DNA of 64,000 nt, taken from assembly GCA_025363755.1 (NCBI GenBank), contig JANYLQ010000046.1, positions 1-64,000 of the forward strand. Reading direction: 5' to 3'. Shown in pieces: positions 3 to 9,384 of this stretch. Position numbers and translations under genes: made by a program. Origin of the DNA: Hyphomicrobiales bacterium (GTDB taxonomy: Bacteria; Pseudomonadota; Alphaproteobacteria; Rhizobiales; Aestuariivirgaceae). Under the pieces are notes generated by a model, which saw only the letters and a program-made list of their open reading frames with translations, did not search any database and had not been told where the DNA came from. The number at the start of each line of letters is the position of its first letter. Within the stretch, counting starts at the first letter, position 1.

Positions 3-599
3 GATGCCGATAGCAAGCTTATCGTTTCTTGGTTGGTTGGTGGCCGTGATGGTGAATATGCAATGGCCTTTATGGACGATTTGCGCTCACGTCTTGCTAA
101 TCGGGTTCAACTCACAACGGACGGCCACAAAGCCTATTTGCAAGCGGTAGAAGGCGCGTTTGGCGATGATGTGGACTATGCGATCTTGCACAAAGTCTAT
201 GGCAACACGCCTGAAAGCGCCAAGGGTAAGTATTCACCTGCTGAATGCATCGGCACTCAAAAGCATCGCATTACAGGTGAGCCTGATATAAAGCACGTTT
301 CGACAAGTTTCATTGAGCGCTCAAATCTCACTATGCGGATGCATAATCGGCGCTTCACACGATTGACAAATGCCTTCAGCAAGAAATTTGAAAGCCATGT
401 TCACATGGTGGTGATCTGGACGGTTTGGTATAACTTCATCCGCATCCACAAGAGCTTGCGCGTTACCCCTGCCATGCAAGCCAATCTCACTGACACAGTT
501 TGGTCATGGGAAACGATTGTTGCCAAGATGGACGAAATTGCGCCAAAGGCCGGACGGCCTAAGAATTACAAAAAGCGCGATCAAGAGATTTCAAACTGA
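3..599 (+). CDS. IS1-like family transposase, 5' end cut by window edge
   Basis: C-terminal part (about 198 residues) of a DDE-type transposase resembling the IS1-like proteins common in alphaproteobacteria. The frame is open from the first in-frame codon at position 3, so the true start lies outside the window. Visible hallmarks are an early D-x-x-S-K-L-I-V-S-W stretch, the T-T-D-G-H-K block around 110-125, and the conserved R-x-N-L-T-M-R-M segment followed by W-Y-N-F-x-R-I-H-K near the C terminus. It ends in a Lys/Arg-rich tail. I cannot see the left end of an element, and I did not find a convincing terminal inverted repeat between the stop and thrS, so it may be a domesticated copy or a remnant. 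Family assignment is by remembered motifs. Confidence 0.8.
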   Translation, partial: DADSKLIVSWLVGGRDGEYAMAFMDDLRSRLANRVQLTTDGHKAYLQAVEGAFGDDVDYAILHKVYGNTPESAKGKYSPAECIGTQKHRITGEPDIKHVSTSFIERSNLTMRMHNRRFTRLTNAFSKKFESHVHMVVIWTVWYNFIRIHKSLRVTPAMQANLTDTVWSWETIVAKMDEIAPKAGRPKNYKKRDQEISN

Positions 600-5557: not shown

Positions 5558-6474
5558 CACTGTTCCATATTCCAGACCCAATGCCCGGCGATATTGCTGC
5601 GGCTGACGCAATCGAAACTGTGATCGTGCCACGGGCGCGTGACCTTGGTGATTTTGAAGTGCGCCGCGCCTTGCCGTCAGCCCAGCGGCAAATGGTGGGG
5701 CCGTTTATTTTCTTTGATCAGTTCGGCCCTGTGCTGATGAAAGCCGGGCAGGGCATGGATGTGCGGCCACATCCGCATATTGGGCTCTCCACTGTGTCGT
5801 GGCTGTTTGACGGCACAATCCAACACAAGGATAGTTTGGGGTTTGATCAATCGATCAAACCTGGGGAACTGAACTGGATGACGGCGGGGAAAGGCATCGT
5901 ACATTCCGAGCGTTCGCTGCCGCAGGATCGTTTGATCGAGCGTAAAGTTTACGGGACGCAAAGTTGGGTGGCCTTGCCCAAGCATCATGAAGAAACTGCT
6001 CCCGGGTTTGAACATATCGATAAGGCTGCATTGCCTCTGCTTGAAGATAAAAACCGCAGCGTGCGGGTGATTGCAGGTTCGATTTTTGGCTCAAAGTCTC
6101 CGGTTAAAACCCACTCTGATTTATTCTATGCTGAGGTGATTTTGCAGGCTGGGGGAAAATTGCCGCTGCCCACGGAACATGTCGAGCGCGGCATTTATGT
6201 TGTTGAGGGTGAGATTGAAGTGGCTGGAGATGTTTTTGCGGCGGGTCGCCTTTTGGTGTTCCATCCGCGTGATCCAATTGTCATCACTTCGTCAAAAGGC
6301 GCTCGTTTTATGATGCTGGGCGGAGAGCCCATGGACGGGCCACGTTATATCTGGTGGAATTTTGTGTCATCATCCAAAGAGAAGATCGAAGCGGCAAAAG
6401 AAGATTGGAAAAATGCGCGCTTTGCCATTGTGCCCGGCGATGACAAAGAATTTATCCCGCTGCCAGCAGTCTGA
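5554..6474 (+). CDS. Pirin family protein
   Basis: A 306-residue bicupin of the pirin family. The N-terminal cupin holds the metal-binding pattern R-P-H-P-H-I-G-L-S-T (about 71-80) with the downstream G-x-x-x-H-x-D and H-S-E-R motifs (about 95-120). A C-terminal pirin domain contains the E-P-M-x-G-P-R-Y-I-W-W-N-F-V signature near 255. Family members bind Fe(II); some act as quercetinase-like dioxygenases or redox sensors. Coupled to the upstream flavin monooxygenase through an overlapping ATGA, which suggests a shared oxidative or catabolic role; the substrate is not visible. Confidence 0.92.
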   Translation: MTLFHIPDPMPGDIAAADAIETVIVPRARDLGDFEVRRALPSAQRQMVGPFIFFDQFGPVLMKAGQGMDVRPHPHIGLSTVSWLFDGTIQHKDSLGFDQSIKPGELNWMTAGKGIVHSERSLPQDRLIERKVYGTQSWVALPKHHEETAPGFEHIDKAALPLLEDKNRSVRVIAGSIFGSKSPVKTHSDLFYAEVILQAGGKLPLPTEHVERGIYVVEGEIEVAGDVFAAGRLLVFHPRDPIVITSSKGARFMMLGGEPMDGPRYIWWNFVSSSKEKIEAAKEDWKNARFAIVPGDDKEFIPLPAV

Positions 6475-6513
6475 CTCAGAAAAAAGTTGATCGACACCGT
6501 AATCGGGAGGCGA

Positions 6514-6541
6514 TTTTGACTTTTCAAAGAAAAAGTCAAAA
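6514..6541 (+). terminator. AT-rich hairpin after pirin gene
   Basis: An 11-bp perfect inverted repeat, TTTTGACTTTT (6514-6524) and AAAAGTCAAAA (6531-6541), with a 6-base loop, lies 40 bases after the pirin stop and 105 bases before the cytochrome b gene. There is no following T-run on either strand, so it could instead be an operator. A second small inverted repeat, AACCAT-5-ATGGTT (6551-6567), follows directly. Confidence 0.35.
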
Positions 6542-6645
6542 CGCTTTAATAACCATTGAACATGGTTTCTTTCAAAAAAGTGATTGGAGTTGATTTGAGT
6601 TTGTCGTCTAATGAGCCGAGATTCGATGAATTGGAGGAGTAACTC

Positions 6646-7302
6646 ATGGAACAAGCTGACTCAAAGCAGCGCACTACAATTCATCGTTTAAGCGTGCGGG
6701 TTTTTCATTGGCTGAATGCTTTGGCCATGTTGATCATGATCCCCAGCGGTTGGCAGATCTATAATGCTACTTCGTTTTGGAATGAAGATTATCAGTTTCC
6801 TGATGCAATCACACTGGGTGGTTGGTTGGGTGGCGGCATTAAATGGCATTTGGCGGGTATGTGGTTGCTCGTCATCAATCTGTCGATTTATCTGATCATT
6901 GGCATTTTGAATGGCCATTTTAAGCGGCGCTTTTTCCCTTGGTCGCCAAGCGGCGTTATCGGGGACATAACCAAAGCTGTTCAATTCAAACTGCCGCACA
7001 ATCATACGAAATATAATTATGTGCAGAAGACAACCTATATCGGGATCATGCTGATCATCATTGTGACCATATTGTCTGGCTTTGAACTTTGGAAGCCGGT
7101 GCAATTTCAGGCGATTGGCTATTTCATGGGTGGTTTTGAAGGTGCGAGGCGTGTGCACTTCATCGGCATGTCATTGATCTGTGCGTTTCTTGTTCTGCAT
7201 CTTGCATTGGTATTGATCGTCCCATCAACATTCTTGCCGATGATCACTGGAACTTTCCGTAAAAAGAACTCTCATGAGAAGGATGCTCAACATGCTGGTT
7301 AA
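6646..7302 (+). CDS. Membrane cytochrome b subunit (YedZ1-like partner of a molybdoenzyme)
   Basis: A 218-residue integral membrane protein of the di-heme cytochrome b561/Ni-hydrogenase-cytochrome-b type. Four hydrophobic segments are visible (about 18-37, 70-92, 128-150, 170-195). Candidate heme-ligand His are in V-F-H-W (about 21), K-W-H-L-A-G (about 68), R-V-H-F-I-G (about 170) and V-L-H-L-A-L (about 184). It is not the ferric-reductase-like MsrQ of E. coli. It overlaps the next gene, a YedY-like molybdoenzyme, so it probably passes electrons from the quinone pool to it. A GGAGGAG ribosome-binding site precedes the ATG. Confidence 0.87.
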   Translation: MEQADSKQRTTIHRLSVRVFHWLNALAMLIMIPSGWQIYNATSFWNEDYQFPDAITLGGWLGGGIKWHLAGMWLLVINLSIYLIIGILNGHFKRRFFPWSPSGVIGDITKAVQFKLPHNHTKYNYVQKTTYIGIMLIIIVTILSGFELWKPVQFQAIGYFMGGFEGARRVHFIGMSLICAFLVLHLALVLIVPSTFLPMITGTFRKKNSHEKDAQHAG

Positions 7303-8047
7303 CCGCAAAACACTTATTGTCGAAAATAAACAGCTGCTCATTGATGTTCAGCGTCGTTCATTCATGAAGCAGACGCTGTCGCTTGGTGCATTGATGATGC
7401 TCACGGGTTGTGCAGATGGTTATGAGCCGGAGTTTGCTGATGATGTTCTCGATAAAATGTCGAGTTGGAATGATCGGGCTCAAGCATGGCTGTTCAGCAG
7501 CAACAGATTGGCACCAACTTATACCCAAGCCGATGTTGTCGATCCATTTCGGTTTAACGCTTATTATGGCGTTGATGAAGTCAGGACCGTGGATGAGGCA
7601 ACTTACAAGCTTGAACTTAGCGGCATGATTGCCAAGAAAGACAGTTGGACGCTCGATCAGCTTCGCGCACTGCCGCAAGAGGCAGCCATTACCCGCCATA
7701 TTTGCGTTGAAGGCTGGAGCATGATTGGCAAATGGGGCGGAGTTCCACTCAAGACATTCTTGGAAATGGTAGGCGCTGATATGACTGCCAAATATGTGGG
7801 CTTTAAATGTGCAGATGATTATTGGACGAGCTTGGACATGCCGTCAGCTTTACACCCACAAACGATAATGGCGCTCACTTTCAACGATAAAGTTTTACCA
7901 AAAGAAAATGGTTTTCCATTCAAAGTTCGTGTGCCAACAAAACTTGGTTTTAAGAATCCAAAACATGTCACGGAAATTTTTGTGACAAATGATTATCCCG
8001 GCGGATATTGGGAAGACAAGGGTTATAATTGGTTCAGTGGTTCGTGA
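7292..8047 (+). CDS. YedY/MsrP-like periplasmic molybdopterin oxidoreductase
   Basis: A 251-residue Tat-exported molybdoenzyme of the sulfite oxidase/YedY class. Known MsrP proteins reduce methionine sulfoxide in periplasmic proteins. A twin-arginine motif Q-R-R-S-F-M-K (about 22-28) is followed by a hydrophobic stretch ending L-T-G-C, a possible lipobox. The Mo-ligand Cys lies in I-C-V-E-G-W-S-M, matching the C-V-E-A-W-S-M of E. coli MsrP. I choose the ATG at 7292 because GAGAAGG lies nine bases upstream; ATGs at 7274 and 7283 are also in frame. It overlaps the cytochrome gene and is followed by the Met-rich peptide gene. Confidence 0.88.
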   Translation: MLVNRKTLIVENKQLLIDVQRRSFMKQTLSLGALMMLTGCADGYEPEFADDVLDKMSSWNDRAQAWLFSSNRLAPTYTQADVVDPFRFNAYYGVDEVRTVDEATYKLELSGMIAKKDSWTLDQLRALPQEAAITRHICVEGWSMIGKWGGVPLKTFLEMVGADMTAKYVGFKCADDYWTSLDMPSALHPQTIMALTFNDKVLPKENGFPFKVRVPTKLGFKNPKHVTEIFVTNDYPGGYWEDKGYNWFSGS

Positions 8048-8113
8048 TCAAAATTGCGTGACAAACGGCGTTGTGATTTGAAAGTGTCATGGTTGAGGGA
8101 TAGGGTTTGAGCA

Positions 8114-8127
8114 GGACAATACTGTCC
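8114..8127. promoter_or_regulatory. Short palindrome upstream of the Met-rich peptide gene
   Basis: GGACA-ATAC-TGTCC is a perfect 5-bp inverted repeat in the 100-base gap between the molybdoenzyme stop and the Met-rich peptide gene, 20 bases before its start and just ahead of the TAGGAG ribosome-binding site. It could be an operator or a small 5' hairpin. It is short enough to be chance. Confidence 0.3.
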
Positions 8128-8147
8128 GTTATCCTAGGAGAATCAAT

Positions 8148-8420
8148 ATGTTAAAGTCACTTGCAGCCGTTGCTTTGTTGGGTCTTGCTTTGGCCGCCCC
8201 AGCTCGTGCCGATGATATGATGGCCATGTGTGATGATGCCACCATGAAGATGATGACAGACGCTATGGCAAAAGACACTGATCCTAAAATGAAGGAAGGT
8301 GTGATGAAGGCTGGCGATGAAATGAAGATGGCTATGGACTCGATGAAAGCCAACAAAATGGACGATTGCAAAATGCATGTTGGCATGGCGATGGACCACA
8401 TGATGATGAAGCACAAGTAA
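8148..8420 (+). CDS. Exported methionine-rich peptide (MrpX-like)
   Basis: A 90-residue secreted protein. The Sec signal peptide is clear (M-L-K-S-L-A-A-V-A-L-L-G..., A-R-A cleavage after about residue 21). The mature 69 residues contain 20 Met together with many Lys and Asp, a few His and two Cys that could pair. Its position behind a cytochrome b and a YedY-like enzyme resembles the hypochlorite-scavenging set of Azospira suillum, in which a Met-rich peptide is oxidised and then reduced by YedY1. That function is inference here. Alternatives are copper or other metal binding. A TAGGAG ribosome-binding site and a strong downstream terminator bracket it. Confidence 0.82.
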   Translation: MLKSLAAVALLGLALAAPARADDMMAMCDDATMKMMTDAMAKDTDPKMKEGVMKAGDEMKMAMDSMKANKMDDCKMHVGMAMDHMMMKHK

Positions 8421-8441
8421 GTTACATTTTTTGCATCAAGA

Positions 8442-8465
8442 GGGCGGAGTGATCCGCCCTTTTTT
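8442..8465 (+). terminator. Rho-independent terminator of the Met-rich peptide gene
   Basis: A perfect 7-bp stem GGGCGGA (8442-8448) / TCCGCCC (8453-8459) with loop GTGA is followed by a run of six T. It lies 21 bases after the peptide stop, and its T-run overlaps the stop codon of the convergent gene at 8464. Confidence 0.9.
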
Positions 8466-9384
8466 ATGGTTTGAGATTAATCTCTGATATTTGGCCTGCA
8501 TCAATTTGAAAATTGGTTTTGAGATTTTGTTCGCCAATTTTTGCTTCGACAACGTAGCGACCCGGCCTTAAAATAATTTCTGCGTCGATGCCGATGGAAG
8601 CGGTTATGAGCGATCCTTGATCATCACTGATTTGCCATTGCACGGCACGCGCTTCATTGCCTGTCACATAGAACTTTGCTAACCCAGCAATGTGGTCGAT
8701 GTTTACAGCACTTGTGTAGCCGGCTCTTACATCCACATCAGTTACAGCAACGGCGTTGCCAGCAGAGAATTTGCTTTCGATACGGTAAGTTCCTGCAGCA
8801 ACGTTTAACACTTCGCCTGGTCTATTGCTTGTGGCAACCAGTTTGCCCTTTTCGATTCCAGACAAGGCAAAAATTTTACTGCTGCTCGCGAGACCGAATT
8901 GATCAATGCCTTTTACGCGGGGCAAGACGCGCAAGGCACCTGCGTTCATCACGAAGCTCATGCCAATCTTGGTGCCGGGCTGGACAGTAATTACTTCTTC
9001 AAGATGAGCAGAACCAAACGAGGCCTCAACATGATACTCGCCCGGTTTCAATGGAACAGTCACGATTGATGCTGTTTTGTCATAGACTAAGGCTTGATCT
9101 TGATCGCTGATCTTCCAATTAATGTTATCAACCAAAACGCTGCCATATTGCGCGTAGAGTGCTGAAAGCTCAAGGCCTTCATGGCCCGTAGGCACTGTAG
9201 TGATGGCCATTTCGCCACTGGCAGGTAAAATAATTTCGCGTGGAGCAGGGCTGGCGCTGATTGGTTTTTCGGTCGTGGCTTGTGAAATGCCTGCGGTCAA
9301 AAATAGAGCCGCCACCAAAGCAGGCGCGAAGCGCTCTAATCTTTGGTGGCGGATATGCGCTGGACGGGTGCTGAGATCGCCCAT
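8464..9384 (-). CDS. Exported beta-sandwich repeat protein, function unknown
   Basis: A 306-residue protein with an N-terminal signal-like segment (hydrophobic stretch about 20-38 ending S-Q-A). Three related units of about 80-90 residues follow, two with W-x-I-S-D near the start (about 89 and 249), all with a P-G-x-Y-x-V-E-A or A-G-T-Y-R-I-E-S core and a trailing x-x-V-x-x-G. Such units are typical of small Ig-like/prealbumin-like beta domains found in von Willebrand-associated periplasmic proteins of alphaproteobacteria. No catalytic motif is seen. An AGGGAC ribosome-binding site precedes the ATG. The gene is convergent with the Met-rich peptide gene and divergent from the nitroreductase operon. 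Confidence 0.6.
   Translation of the reverse strand: MGDLSTRPAHIRHQRLERFAPALVAALFLTAGISQATTEKPISASPAPREIILPASGEMAITTVPTGHEGLELSALYAQYGSVLVDNINWKISDQDQALVYDKTASIVTVPLKPGEYHVEASFGSAHLEEVITVQPGTKIGMSFVMNAGALRVLPRVKGIDQFGLASSSKIFALSGIEKGKLVATSNRPGEVLNVAAGTYRIESKFSAGNAVAVTDVDVRAGYTSAVNIDHIAGLAKFYVTGNEARAVQWQISDDQGSLITASIGIDAEIILRPGRYVVEAKIGEQNLKTNFQIDAGQISEINLKP

What the first reader, a model, noticed from the sequence alone, without database searches (positions are those of the whole stretch)
6646..8420. Molybdoenzyme, cytochrome b and a 29% Met exported peptide in one locus
A b-type cytochrome overlaps a Tat-exported YedY/MsrP-like enzyme, and 100 bases on comes an exported peptide whose mature 69 residues hold 20 Met. 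The cytochrome is not MsrQ-like. Azospira suillum has a comparable set in which a Met-rich peptide scavenges hypochlorite and YedY1 regenerates it, but there with an adjacent SigF/NrsF pair that is missing here. This may be an independent version of the same idea with different regulation and two extra Cys in the peptide.
Basis: partly seen in the sequence, partly recalled or inferred. Interest (0 to 1): 0.7.

Follow-up and report, generated by a model that had tools for sequence, protein, structure and literature searches.

The report
Methionine shield with a swapped peptide
A bacterium of the Hyphomicrobiales carries a three-gene set that probably soaks up bleach-like oxidants on a methionine-stuffed exported protein and then repairs it; the enzyme pair is a known kind, but the methionine protein seems to come from a different, unnamed protein family than the one known elsewhere.

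Summary
The genes are as described: a b561-type cytochrome (6646-7302), an overlapping YedY-like Mo enzyme (7274-8047; Tat motif plus lipobox) and an exported peptide (8148-8420) with 20 Met and 2 Cys in 69 mature residues. The enzyme pair is not independent: the enzyme is 51% identical to E. coli CFT073 C3567, and the best 80 named relatives all have this cytochrome directly upstream. Cytochrome, YedY-like enzyme and Met-rich peptide together are already published (Azospira, Brucella, CFT073). The peptide is different. It does not match the MXKDX (MrpX-type) model, and only its signal peptide aligns with MXKDX peptides. It is a Met-loaded member of an unnamed two-Cys, predicted all-helical family; of 24 members read outside the genus, 20 have few Met. 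The Cys pair is therefore probably ancestral, not 'extra'. In the genus all 10 genomes with this YedY have the peptide 100-120 bp downstream; in another family one member follows a divergent YedY. I read it as a non-homologous replacement of the sacrificial Met peptide (inferred). Main rival: a copper-handling client protein repaired by the enzyme; one relative follows a multicopper oxidase, and Met-rich members without YedY exist.

The parts
6580..6598 (+). 19-bp element GTGATTGGAGTTGATTTGA, 66 to 48 bases before the cytochrome start; presumed promoter or operator, regulator unknown
   Evidence: Best common 19-mer of 8 genus upstream regions (of 10; two near-duplicates left out), 61-80 bp before the start, 22.2 bits against at most 14.6 in 30 shuffled sets; the finder forces one site per sequence and gave the shuffled sets fewer starts. 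The only copy in the genome with under 2 mismatches to a consensus pattern. Not found upstream in 7 loci outside the genus
6646..7302 (+). b561-type cytochrome b (PF01292), presumed quinol-to-enzyme electron carrier
   Evidence: 80.6 bits; six His invariant in 6 aligned sequences; directly upstream of YedY on the same strand in 80 of 80 named loci
7274..8047 (+). YedY/MsrP-like molybdopterin oxidoreductase; Tat motif RRSFMK, lipobox LTGC, Mo-ligand Cys in RHICVEGW (ligand role recalled); start may be 7274, 7283 or 7292
   Evidence: PF00174 106 bits; NF003767 MsrP 95.5 bits, below cut-off 207; 51% identical to CFT073 C3567, 31% to E. coli MsrP; the two Arg, lipobox Cys and catalytic-region Cys invariant in 7 sequences
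8148..8420 (+). exported Met-rich two-Cys peptide (signal peptide about 8148-8210, mature 69 aa with 20 Met; Cys28 and Cys74 of the precursor)
   Evidence: ribosome-binding-site-like AGGAG seen; found in 14 of 37 genus genomes; two Cys invariant in 17 of 17 aligned; signal cleavage site judged by eye
8438..8463 (+). intrinsic-terminator-like hairpin after the peptide gene
   Evidence: 11 pairs; the pattern alone is no more frequent than in shuffles: 1 found, 2.1 expected; G+C-rich hairpins of differing sequence at the same place in all ten genus loci printed, read by eye

Best explanation
A three-gene set for a rechargeable periplasmic methionine shield. The secreted peptide folds into a small helical bundle, possibly stapled by a Cys28-Cys74 disulfide, and offers about 20 methionines to oxidants such as hypochlorous acid, chloramines or peroxide, which turn them into methionine sulfoxide. 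The Tat-exported, lipid-anchored YedY-like Mo enzyme reduces the sulfoxides back with electrons that the b561-type cytochrome takes from the quinol pool. The enzyme/cytochrome core is of the published YedY1/C3567 kind. The sacrificial peptide has been replaced by a Met-loaded member of a different two-Cys family. Shown here: gene order, conservation, family assignments, tight linkage in the genus, no match to MXKDX, Cys pair shared with low-Met relatives. Inferred: sink function, disulfide, electron path, oxidant, co-transcription.
For: Linkage: in 37 same-genus genomes, 10 of 10 with this YedY (E below 1e-100) have the peptide 100-120 bp downstream; of the 27 without it, 4 have the peptide (Fisher p 2.9e-6, not corrected for relatedness). 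This holds in two unlike gene neighbourhoods. In G800, another family, a 16-Met member lies 53 bp after a clade-2 YedY with a PF01292 cytochrome. G002 keeps the peptide behind a 37-residue C-terminal remnant of YedY. Relatives carry other Met-rich exported peptides beside the pair: of 80 named loci, 27 an MXKDX-like one (18 downstream as here, 9 upstream of the cytochrome) and 1 (Roseiarcus, L083) a Cys-free 27-Met one that does not match TIGR02953. Relative L073 has a glutathione peroxidase and an exported-looking MsrA after YedY. Published for the same module: loss of Brucella bcrXQP together lowers HOCl survival (PMC8315932, section read); loss of c3566 or c3567 lowers tert-butyl hydroperoxide survival (PMC8550376, section read). 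Met counts: median 18 in 5 YedY-adjacent, 7 in 25 other members (p 0.001, not corrected for relatedness).
Against: High Met does not need YedY: G790 has 19 Met of 70 and no YedY hit at E 1e-25 in a genome rated 100% complete; G658 (15), G017 (14) and G008 (14) are not adjacent to theirs; G182 has 12 of 58 and no YedY in the 2.6 kb held. G553 (12 Met) directly follows a multicopper oxidase. Met positions are conserved almost as well as other residues (shared-Met index 0.48, other identity 0.56, random 0.15), so specific Met sites are not excluded. 50 of 80 named YedY loci have no Met-rich peptide in the range searched, 8 of them on short contigs. There are no expression or oxidation data for this organism.
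Confidence: 0.55

Rival explanations
1. The peptide is a working periplasmic protein, most likely a Cu(I)-binding chaperone or buffer using MxM/MxxM clusters, and the YedY-like enzyme keeps its Met reduced: a dedicated client, not a sink.
For: E. coli MsrPQ repairs the Met of the copper chaperone CusF and is induced by copper (PMC9302797, abstract read). A family member in G553 lies directly after a multicopper oxidase that itself follows an outer-membrane efflux gene. The mature peptide is full of MxM and MxxM motifs (seen). Met positions are partly conserved. Many peptide-less YedY loci have a regulator resembling one annotated as heavy-metal type.
Against: I saw no copper gene next to the window locus or the genus loci (by eye; no systematic search). 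Met number varies from 15 to 20 among 9 aligned YedY-adjacent members, with only 2 Met columns shared by all 9. Where the peptide differs between relatives, Met richness is kept but the mature sequences do not align.
Confidence: 0.25
2. The peptide is a small helical periplasmic chaperone or scaffold (Spy-like in role) that is repaired by the enzyme after oxidation.
For: Spy, a periplasmic chaperone with 11 Met, is repaired by MsrP under chlorite stress (PMC12503329, passages read). The window peptide is predicted all-helical (mean pLDDT 74.3).
Against: No Spy or CpxP family match in Pfam or NCBIfam and no significant structural match in the PDB (best Foldseek E 4.0).
Confidence: 0.08
3. It is simply an MrpX-type (MXKDX repeat) homologue that has drifted.
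For: Same operon position and bulk composition; one of the 17 A4 members reaches TIGR02953 at E 0.0019; some MXKDX-like peptides also have two Cys, for example CFT073 and L141, though closely spaced.
Against: The window peptide has no TIGR02953 match at E 0.01 while control L102 scores 66.2 bits against a cut-off of 41. Profile-profile comparison aligns only the signal peptides (24 columns). The widely spaced Cys pair is shared with low-Met proteins.
Confidence: 0.05

Closest known systems
E. coli CFT073 c3566-c3568 (OrhK/OrhR regulated, PMC8550376)
   Same: Gene order cytochrome b, YedY-like enzyme, Met-rich peptide; enzyme 51% identical to C3567
   Different: Two-component system next door; peptide resembles MXKDX (35.2 bits, under the cut-off 41); c3566 annotated as frameshifted in the held record
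Brucella melitensis bcrXQP with BcrS/AbcS (PMC8315932)
   Same: Met-rich exported peptide plus a putative MetO reductase pair, also Alphaproteobacteria; HOCl phenotype of the triple deletion published
   Different: MXKDX peptide; adjacent ECF16 sigma/anti-sigma with a GTAAC...CGAA-type promoter, which I did not find before the window operon. I fetched no Brucella sequence
Azospira suillum yedY1-yedZ-mrpX with SigF/NrsF (Melnyk et al. 2015, mBio e00233-15)
   Same: The proposed Met-cycling mechanism
   Different: SigF/NrsF is part of the set; BcrX, called its homologue, is MXKDX type (PMC8315932). The paper is not held; I know it from recall and from PMC5748585, PMC4623255 and PMC10746228 (passages read)
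E. coli MsrP-MsrQ
   Same: Mo enzyme domain and the Cys region (31% identity); periplasmic MetO reduction (published)
   Different: Window enzyme is below the MsrP equivalog cut-off; MsrQ has no significant similarity to the window cytochrome; no Met-rich peptide gene annotated beside msrPQ in K-12

Membership tests
YedY-like enzyme + b561 cytochrome + exported Met-rich peptide module (yedYZ-mrpX / c3566-c3568 kind) | YedY-like enzyme of the same clade | tested here: met
   51% identity to C3567; both lie in the 104-row set (100/100) set apart from 5 clade-2 rows in a midpoint-rooted tree
YedY-like enzyme + b561 cytochrome + exported Met-rich peptide module (yedYZ-mrpX / c3566-c3568 kind) | b561-type cytochrome directly upstream | tested here: met
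   PF01292; 80 of 80 named relatives have a homologue there
YedY-like enzyme + b561 cytochrome + exported Met-rich peptide module (yedYZ-mrpX / c3566-c3568 kind) | exported Met-rich peptide beside the pair | tested here: met
   20 of 69 mature residues are Met, 100 bp gap
YedY-like enzyme + b561 cytochrome + exported Met-rich peptide module (yedYZ-mrpX / c3566-c3568 kind) | oxidant sensitivity on loss and cycling of Met sulfoxide on the peptide | not testable with these tools
   needs mutants and mass spectrometry
MXKDX repeat protein / MrpX type (TIGR02953) | score above the curated cut-off 41 bits | tested here: not met
   no match at E 0.01; control L102 66.2 bits; hhalign with 13 MXKDX-like peptides covers only the signal peptide
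MsrP equivalog (NF003767) | score above 207 bits | tested here: not met
   95.5 bits; the window gene is the genome's only match at E 1e-5
MsrQ | similarity to E. coli MsrQ | tested here: not met
   27-residue chance match, E 7.6; Pfam gives only PF01292
SigF/NrsF-controlled locus (ECF16) | adjacent NrsF | tested here: not met
   the genome's only NrsF is at G000:C41
SigF/NrsF-controlled locus (ECF16) | ECF16-type promoter before the operon | tested here: inconclusive
   loose GTAA..CGAA pattern not found in the 220 bases before the cytochrome; the same pattern has four matches in the 9 kb of L054, so it is a weak test

The most novel reading that the evidence does not exclude
A pre-existing, low-Met, two-Cys helical secreted protein family has been turned at least twice (window genus; G800's family) into a rechargeable methionine store beside a YedY-cytochrome pair. 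The module then has a fixed enzyme core and an interchangeable sacrificial peptide, and the disulfide-stapled fold makes the store work as a structured oxidant sink or sensor rather than a floppy repeat peptide.
Probability: 0.28. Interest if true: 0.7.

Novelty: new variant of a known kind. Interest (0 to 1): 0.5.

Why it matters
It would show that the published Met-peptide/YedY shield is modular: enzyme and electron carrier stay, while unrelated Met-rich proteins take the sacrificial role. That separates what the mechanism needs (many exposed Met, export) from what it does not (the MXKDX repeat), and gives natural low-Met and high-Met versions of one family with which to test whether Met number alone makes an oxidant sink. 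It may also tie Met-sulfoxide repair to copper handling through one small family.

Tried and rejected
Copy of MrpX: rejected. MsrPQ: rejected as membership. Control by the genome's own SigF/NrsF: no ECF16-type motif before the cytochrome, but this was a loose pattern scan (four matches in 9 kb of L054, one of them before the DUF2282 gene), so it neither proves nor excludes much.

The 19-bp element as a regulon signature: rejected. Apart from the copy used to make the pattern, the genome-wide matches all have 2 mismatches and are near background (8 in all against 5 for the reversed control), and the element is not found in 7 loci outside the genus. G002 has a weaker copy near its YedY remnant (15.7, null maximum 13.1); not pursued.

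Met-position turnover as proof of a bulk sink: inconclusive. Structure search: 67 hits, none below E 0.001. Rfam: nothing in 6400-8600. The BRANT and GerD NCBIfam hits (E about 0.002) were not checked further. L083's Cys-free peptide reaches the two-Cys profile weakly (E 0.00056), so 'a third kind' is probable, not proved.

The script mislabelled several genus peptides as MXKDX and missed L074 and L116; one search replaced it. still files L083 as MXKDX although it does not match TIGR02953, so I count 27 MXKDX-like, 1 other, 2 two-Cys (both loci of genus genomes already counted, L071 and L072) and 50 none. Only L102 and the CFT073 peptide were scored against TIGR02953; the rest rest on Met spacing. 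The long-branch warning for E. coli MsrP was met by leaving it out; one search warns of other long rows, L136 and L083 among them.

Full report
What is there. The window holds three genes in one direction: a 218-aa cytochrome (6646-7302), a 257-aa YedY-like enzyme (7274-8047) and a 90-aa exported peptide (8148-8420). The cytochrome matches PF01292 and the enzyme PF00174; the peptide matches nothing at E 0.1. The mature peptide has 69 residues with 20 Met, 2 Cys, 11 Lys and 14 acidic residues. A terminator-like hairpin follows at 8438-8463. The pattern alone is not above chance there (1 found, 2.1 expected in shuffles), but G+C-rich hairpins of differing sequence stand at the same place in all ten genus loci printed (by eye). 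A 19-bp element is the best common word of 8 genus upstream regions, 61-80 bp before the cytochrome start (22.2 bits against at most 14.6 in 30 shuffled sets; the finder forces one site per sequence). So the three genes look like one transcription unit; co-transcription itself is inferred.

The enzyme and cytochrome. The enzyme carries RRSFMK followed by LTGC; the two Arg, the lipobox Cys and the Cys of RHIC-EGW are invariant in seven aligned sequences, so it is probably a Tat lipoprotein. It is 51% identical to C3567 of E. coli CFT073 and 31% to E. coli MsrP. It stays under the MsrP equivalog cut-off (95.5 of 207 bits), and the genome has no other match to that model at E 1e-5. The best solved relative by sequence is 1xdq (that this is E. 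coli YedY is recalled). In all 80 the cytochrome homologue lies directly upstream on the same strand. Of the 80, 27 have an MXKDX-like peptide in the range searched (18 downstream, 9 upstream of the cytochrome), 1 (Roseiarcus fermentans) a different Cys-free Met-rich peptide, 2 the window type (both genus genomes), and 50 none, 8 of these on loci cut short. In the enzyme tree the genus falls in a 15-row set (97/93) with Roseiarcus, L073 and the long-branched L136, apart from the main MXKDX set. Several deeper forks have modest support.

The peptide. A profile of the genus peptides reached 5 of 385 genomes of the class at E 1e-4, the window's own included. With the four others added, it reached 44 of 397 genomes of the order at E 1e-3. 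I could read 30 of these 44. The Cys pair is invariant in the 17 aligned members. Of 24 members read outside the genus, 20 have 1-9 Met in about 60-70 residues; G790 (19), G800 (16), G658 (15) and G553 (12) are rich, as is G182 of the class search (12 of 58). Mature two-Cys and MXKDX profiles do not align; only the signal peptides do, and the window peptide does not match TIGR02953 where a control passes. Against a clean split, one of 17 family members reaches TIGR02953 at E 0.0019, and some MXKDX-like peptides also hold two closely spaced Cys. AlphaFold2 gives helices 21-28, 30-42, 46-67 and 71-89 (mean pLDDT 74.3, pTM 0.58). No solved structure matches significantly. Cys28 lies at the end of the first short helix and Cys74 near the start of the last, so a disulfide is possible; I did not measure a distance.

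Linkage. Among 37 same-genus genomes, 10 have this YedY and all 10 have the peptide 100-120 bp downstream; of the other 27, four have the peptide (Fisher p 2.9e-6, relatedness not corrected). Of these four, G002 keeps a 37-residue YedY C-terminus just upstream of the peptide. G017 and G008 have only a clade-2 YedY on another contig, and G010 (4 Met) has none at E 1e-25. In G800, from another family of the order, a 16-Met member follows a clade-2 YedY and PF01292 cytochrome by 53 bp. Against a simple rule, G790 has 19 Met without any YedY hit, and G553's member follows a multicopper oxidase. Over the 30 loci read, 5 are beside an intact YedY, 1 beside a remnant and 24 beside none (plus the window). 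The median Met count is 18 in the 5 and 7 in the other 25, which include the G002 remnant and G017 (p 0.001, relatedness not corrected).

Mechanism. The best reading is a rechargeable methionine shield: oxidants hit the peptide, the lipid-anchored Mo enzyme reduces the sulfoxides, and the cytochrome supplies electrons. The same module has published oxidant phenotypes. Loss of all three Brucella bcrXQP genes lowers HOCl survival but not H2O2 survival (PMC8315932, section 6 read). Loss of CFT073 c3566 or c3567 lowers tert-butyl hydroperoxide survival (PMC8550376, section 10 read). That section tells no phenotype for the peptide gene, and c3566-c3567 alone restored growth in the regulator mutants, which weakens the case for the peptide as the active part there. 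The Azospira work (Melnyk et al. 2015) is not held; I know it from recall and from passages in PMC5748585, PMC4623255 and PMC10746228. The main rival is a repaired client protein, above all a copper chaperone, since E. coli MsrPQ repairs CusF (PMC9302797, abstract read) and Spy (PMC12503329, passages read), and one family member follows a multicopper oxidase.

Regulation. I saw no regulator gene at the locus. The genome has one NrsF with a sigma factor on another contig, beside a bufferin-like set (DUF2282, MbnB/TglH/ChrH-type enzyme, DoxX-like by eye). A GTAAC...CGAA site resembling the published Brucella motif stands before the DUF2282 gene, but the pattern is loose, and none was found before the window operon. 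The 19-bp element is seen only in the genus and is not a regulon mark. This agrees with 'different regulation' without naming the regulator.

Novelty. The gene set is a known kind. What I did not find described is the peptide family and its use here. The literature searches were (terms around methionine-rich peptide, YedY/YedY1, MrpX, MXKDX, MsrP/MsrPQ, OrhK/OrhR, Rhizobiales, hypochlorite). They cover open-licence papers only, so absence there is weak evidence. I rate it a new variant of a known kind.

Noticed in passing
L189:9930-13024 (G553): A Met/His-rich member of the two-Cys peptide family lies directly after a multicopper oxidase and an outer-membrane efflux protein, suggesting a copper role for part of the family.
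   Followed up: partly
L083:5753-6494 (Roseiarcus fermentans): After cytochrome-YedY stand a possible Met-rich ORF (111 aa) and a Cys-free exported peptide with 27 Met in its last 82 residues that does not match TIGR02953: perhaps a third kind of Met peptide beside this enzyme pair.
   Followed up: partly
L054:3337-7243 (G000:C41): Unlinked bufferin-like set (DUF2282, MbnB/TglH/ChrH-type enzyme, DoxX-like by eye) with a sigma factor and NrsF; the DUF2282 precursor also has a Met-rich stretch after its signal peptide.
   Followed up: partly
L073:2534-4539: In a related alphaproteobacterium the YedY gene is followed by a glutathione peroxidase and an exported-looking MsrA.
   Followed up: partly
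L047:9448-9558 (G002): Only the last 37 residues of a YedY remain upstream of an otherwise intact Met-rich peptide gene, with a weak copy of the 19-bp element nearby.
   Followed up: partly
window 6580-6598: The conserved 19-bp element upstream of the cytochrome resembles neither the ECF16 motif nor (from recall) the sigma-54 consensus; its regulator is unknown.
   Followed up: partly
L079, L080, L088 and other Pseudomonas/Paraburkholderia loci: Many peptide-less cytochrome-YedY loci have, upstream, a response regulator similar to one annotated as heavy-metal type, with a histidine kinase: another hint of a metal link.
   Followed up: no
window 33-599: ORF that looks by eye like an insertion-sequence transposase fragment near the window's left edge.
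   Followed up: no
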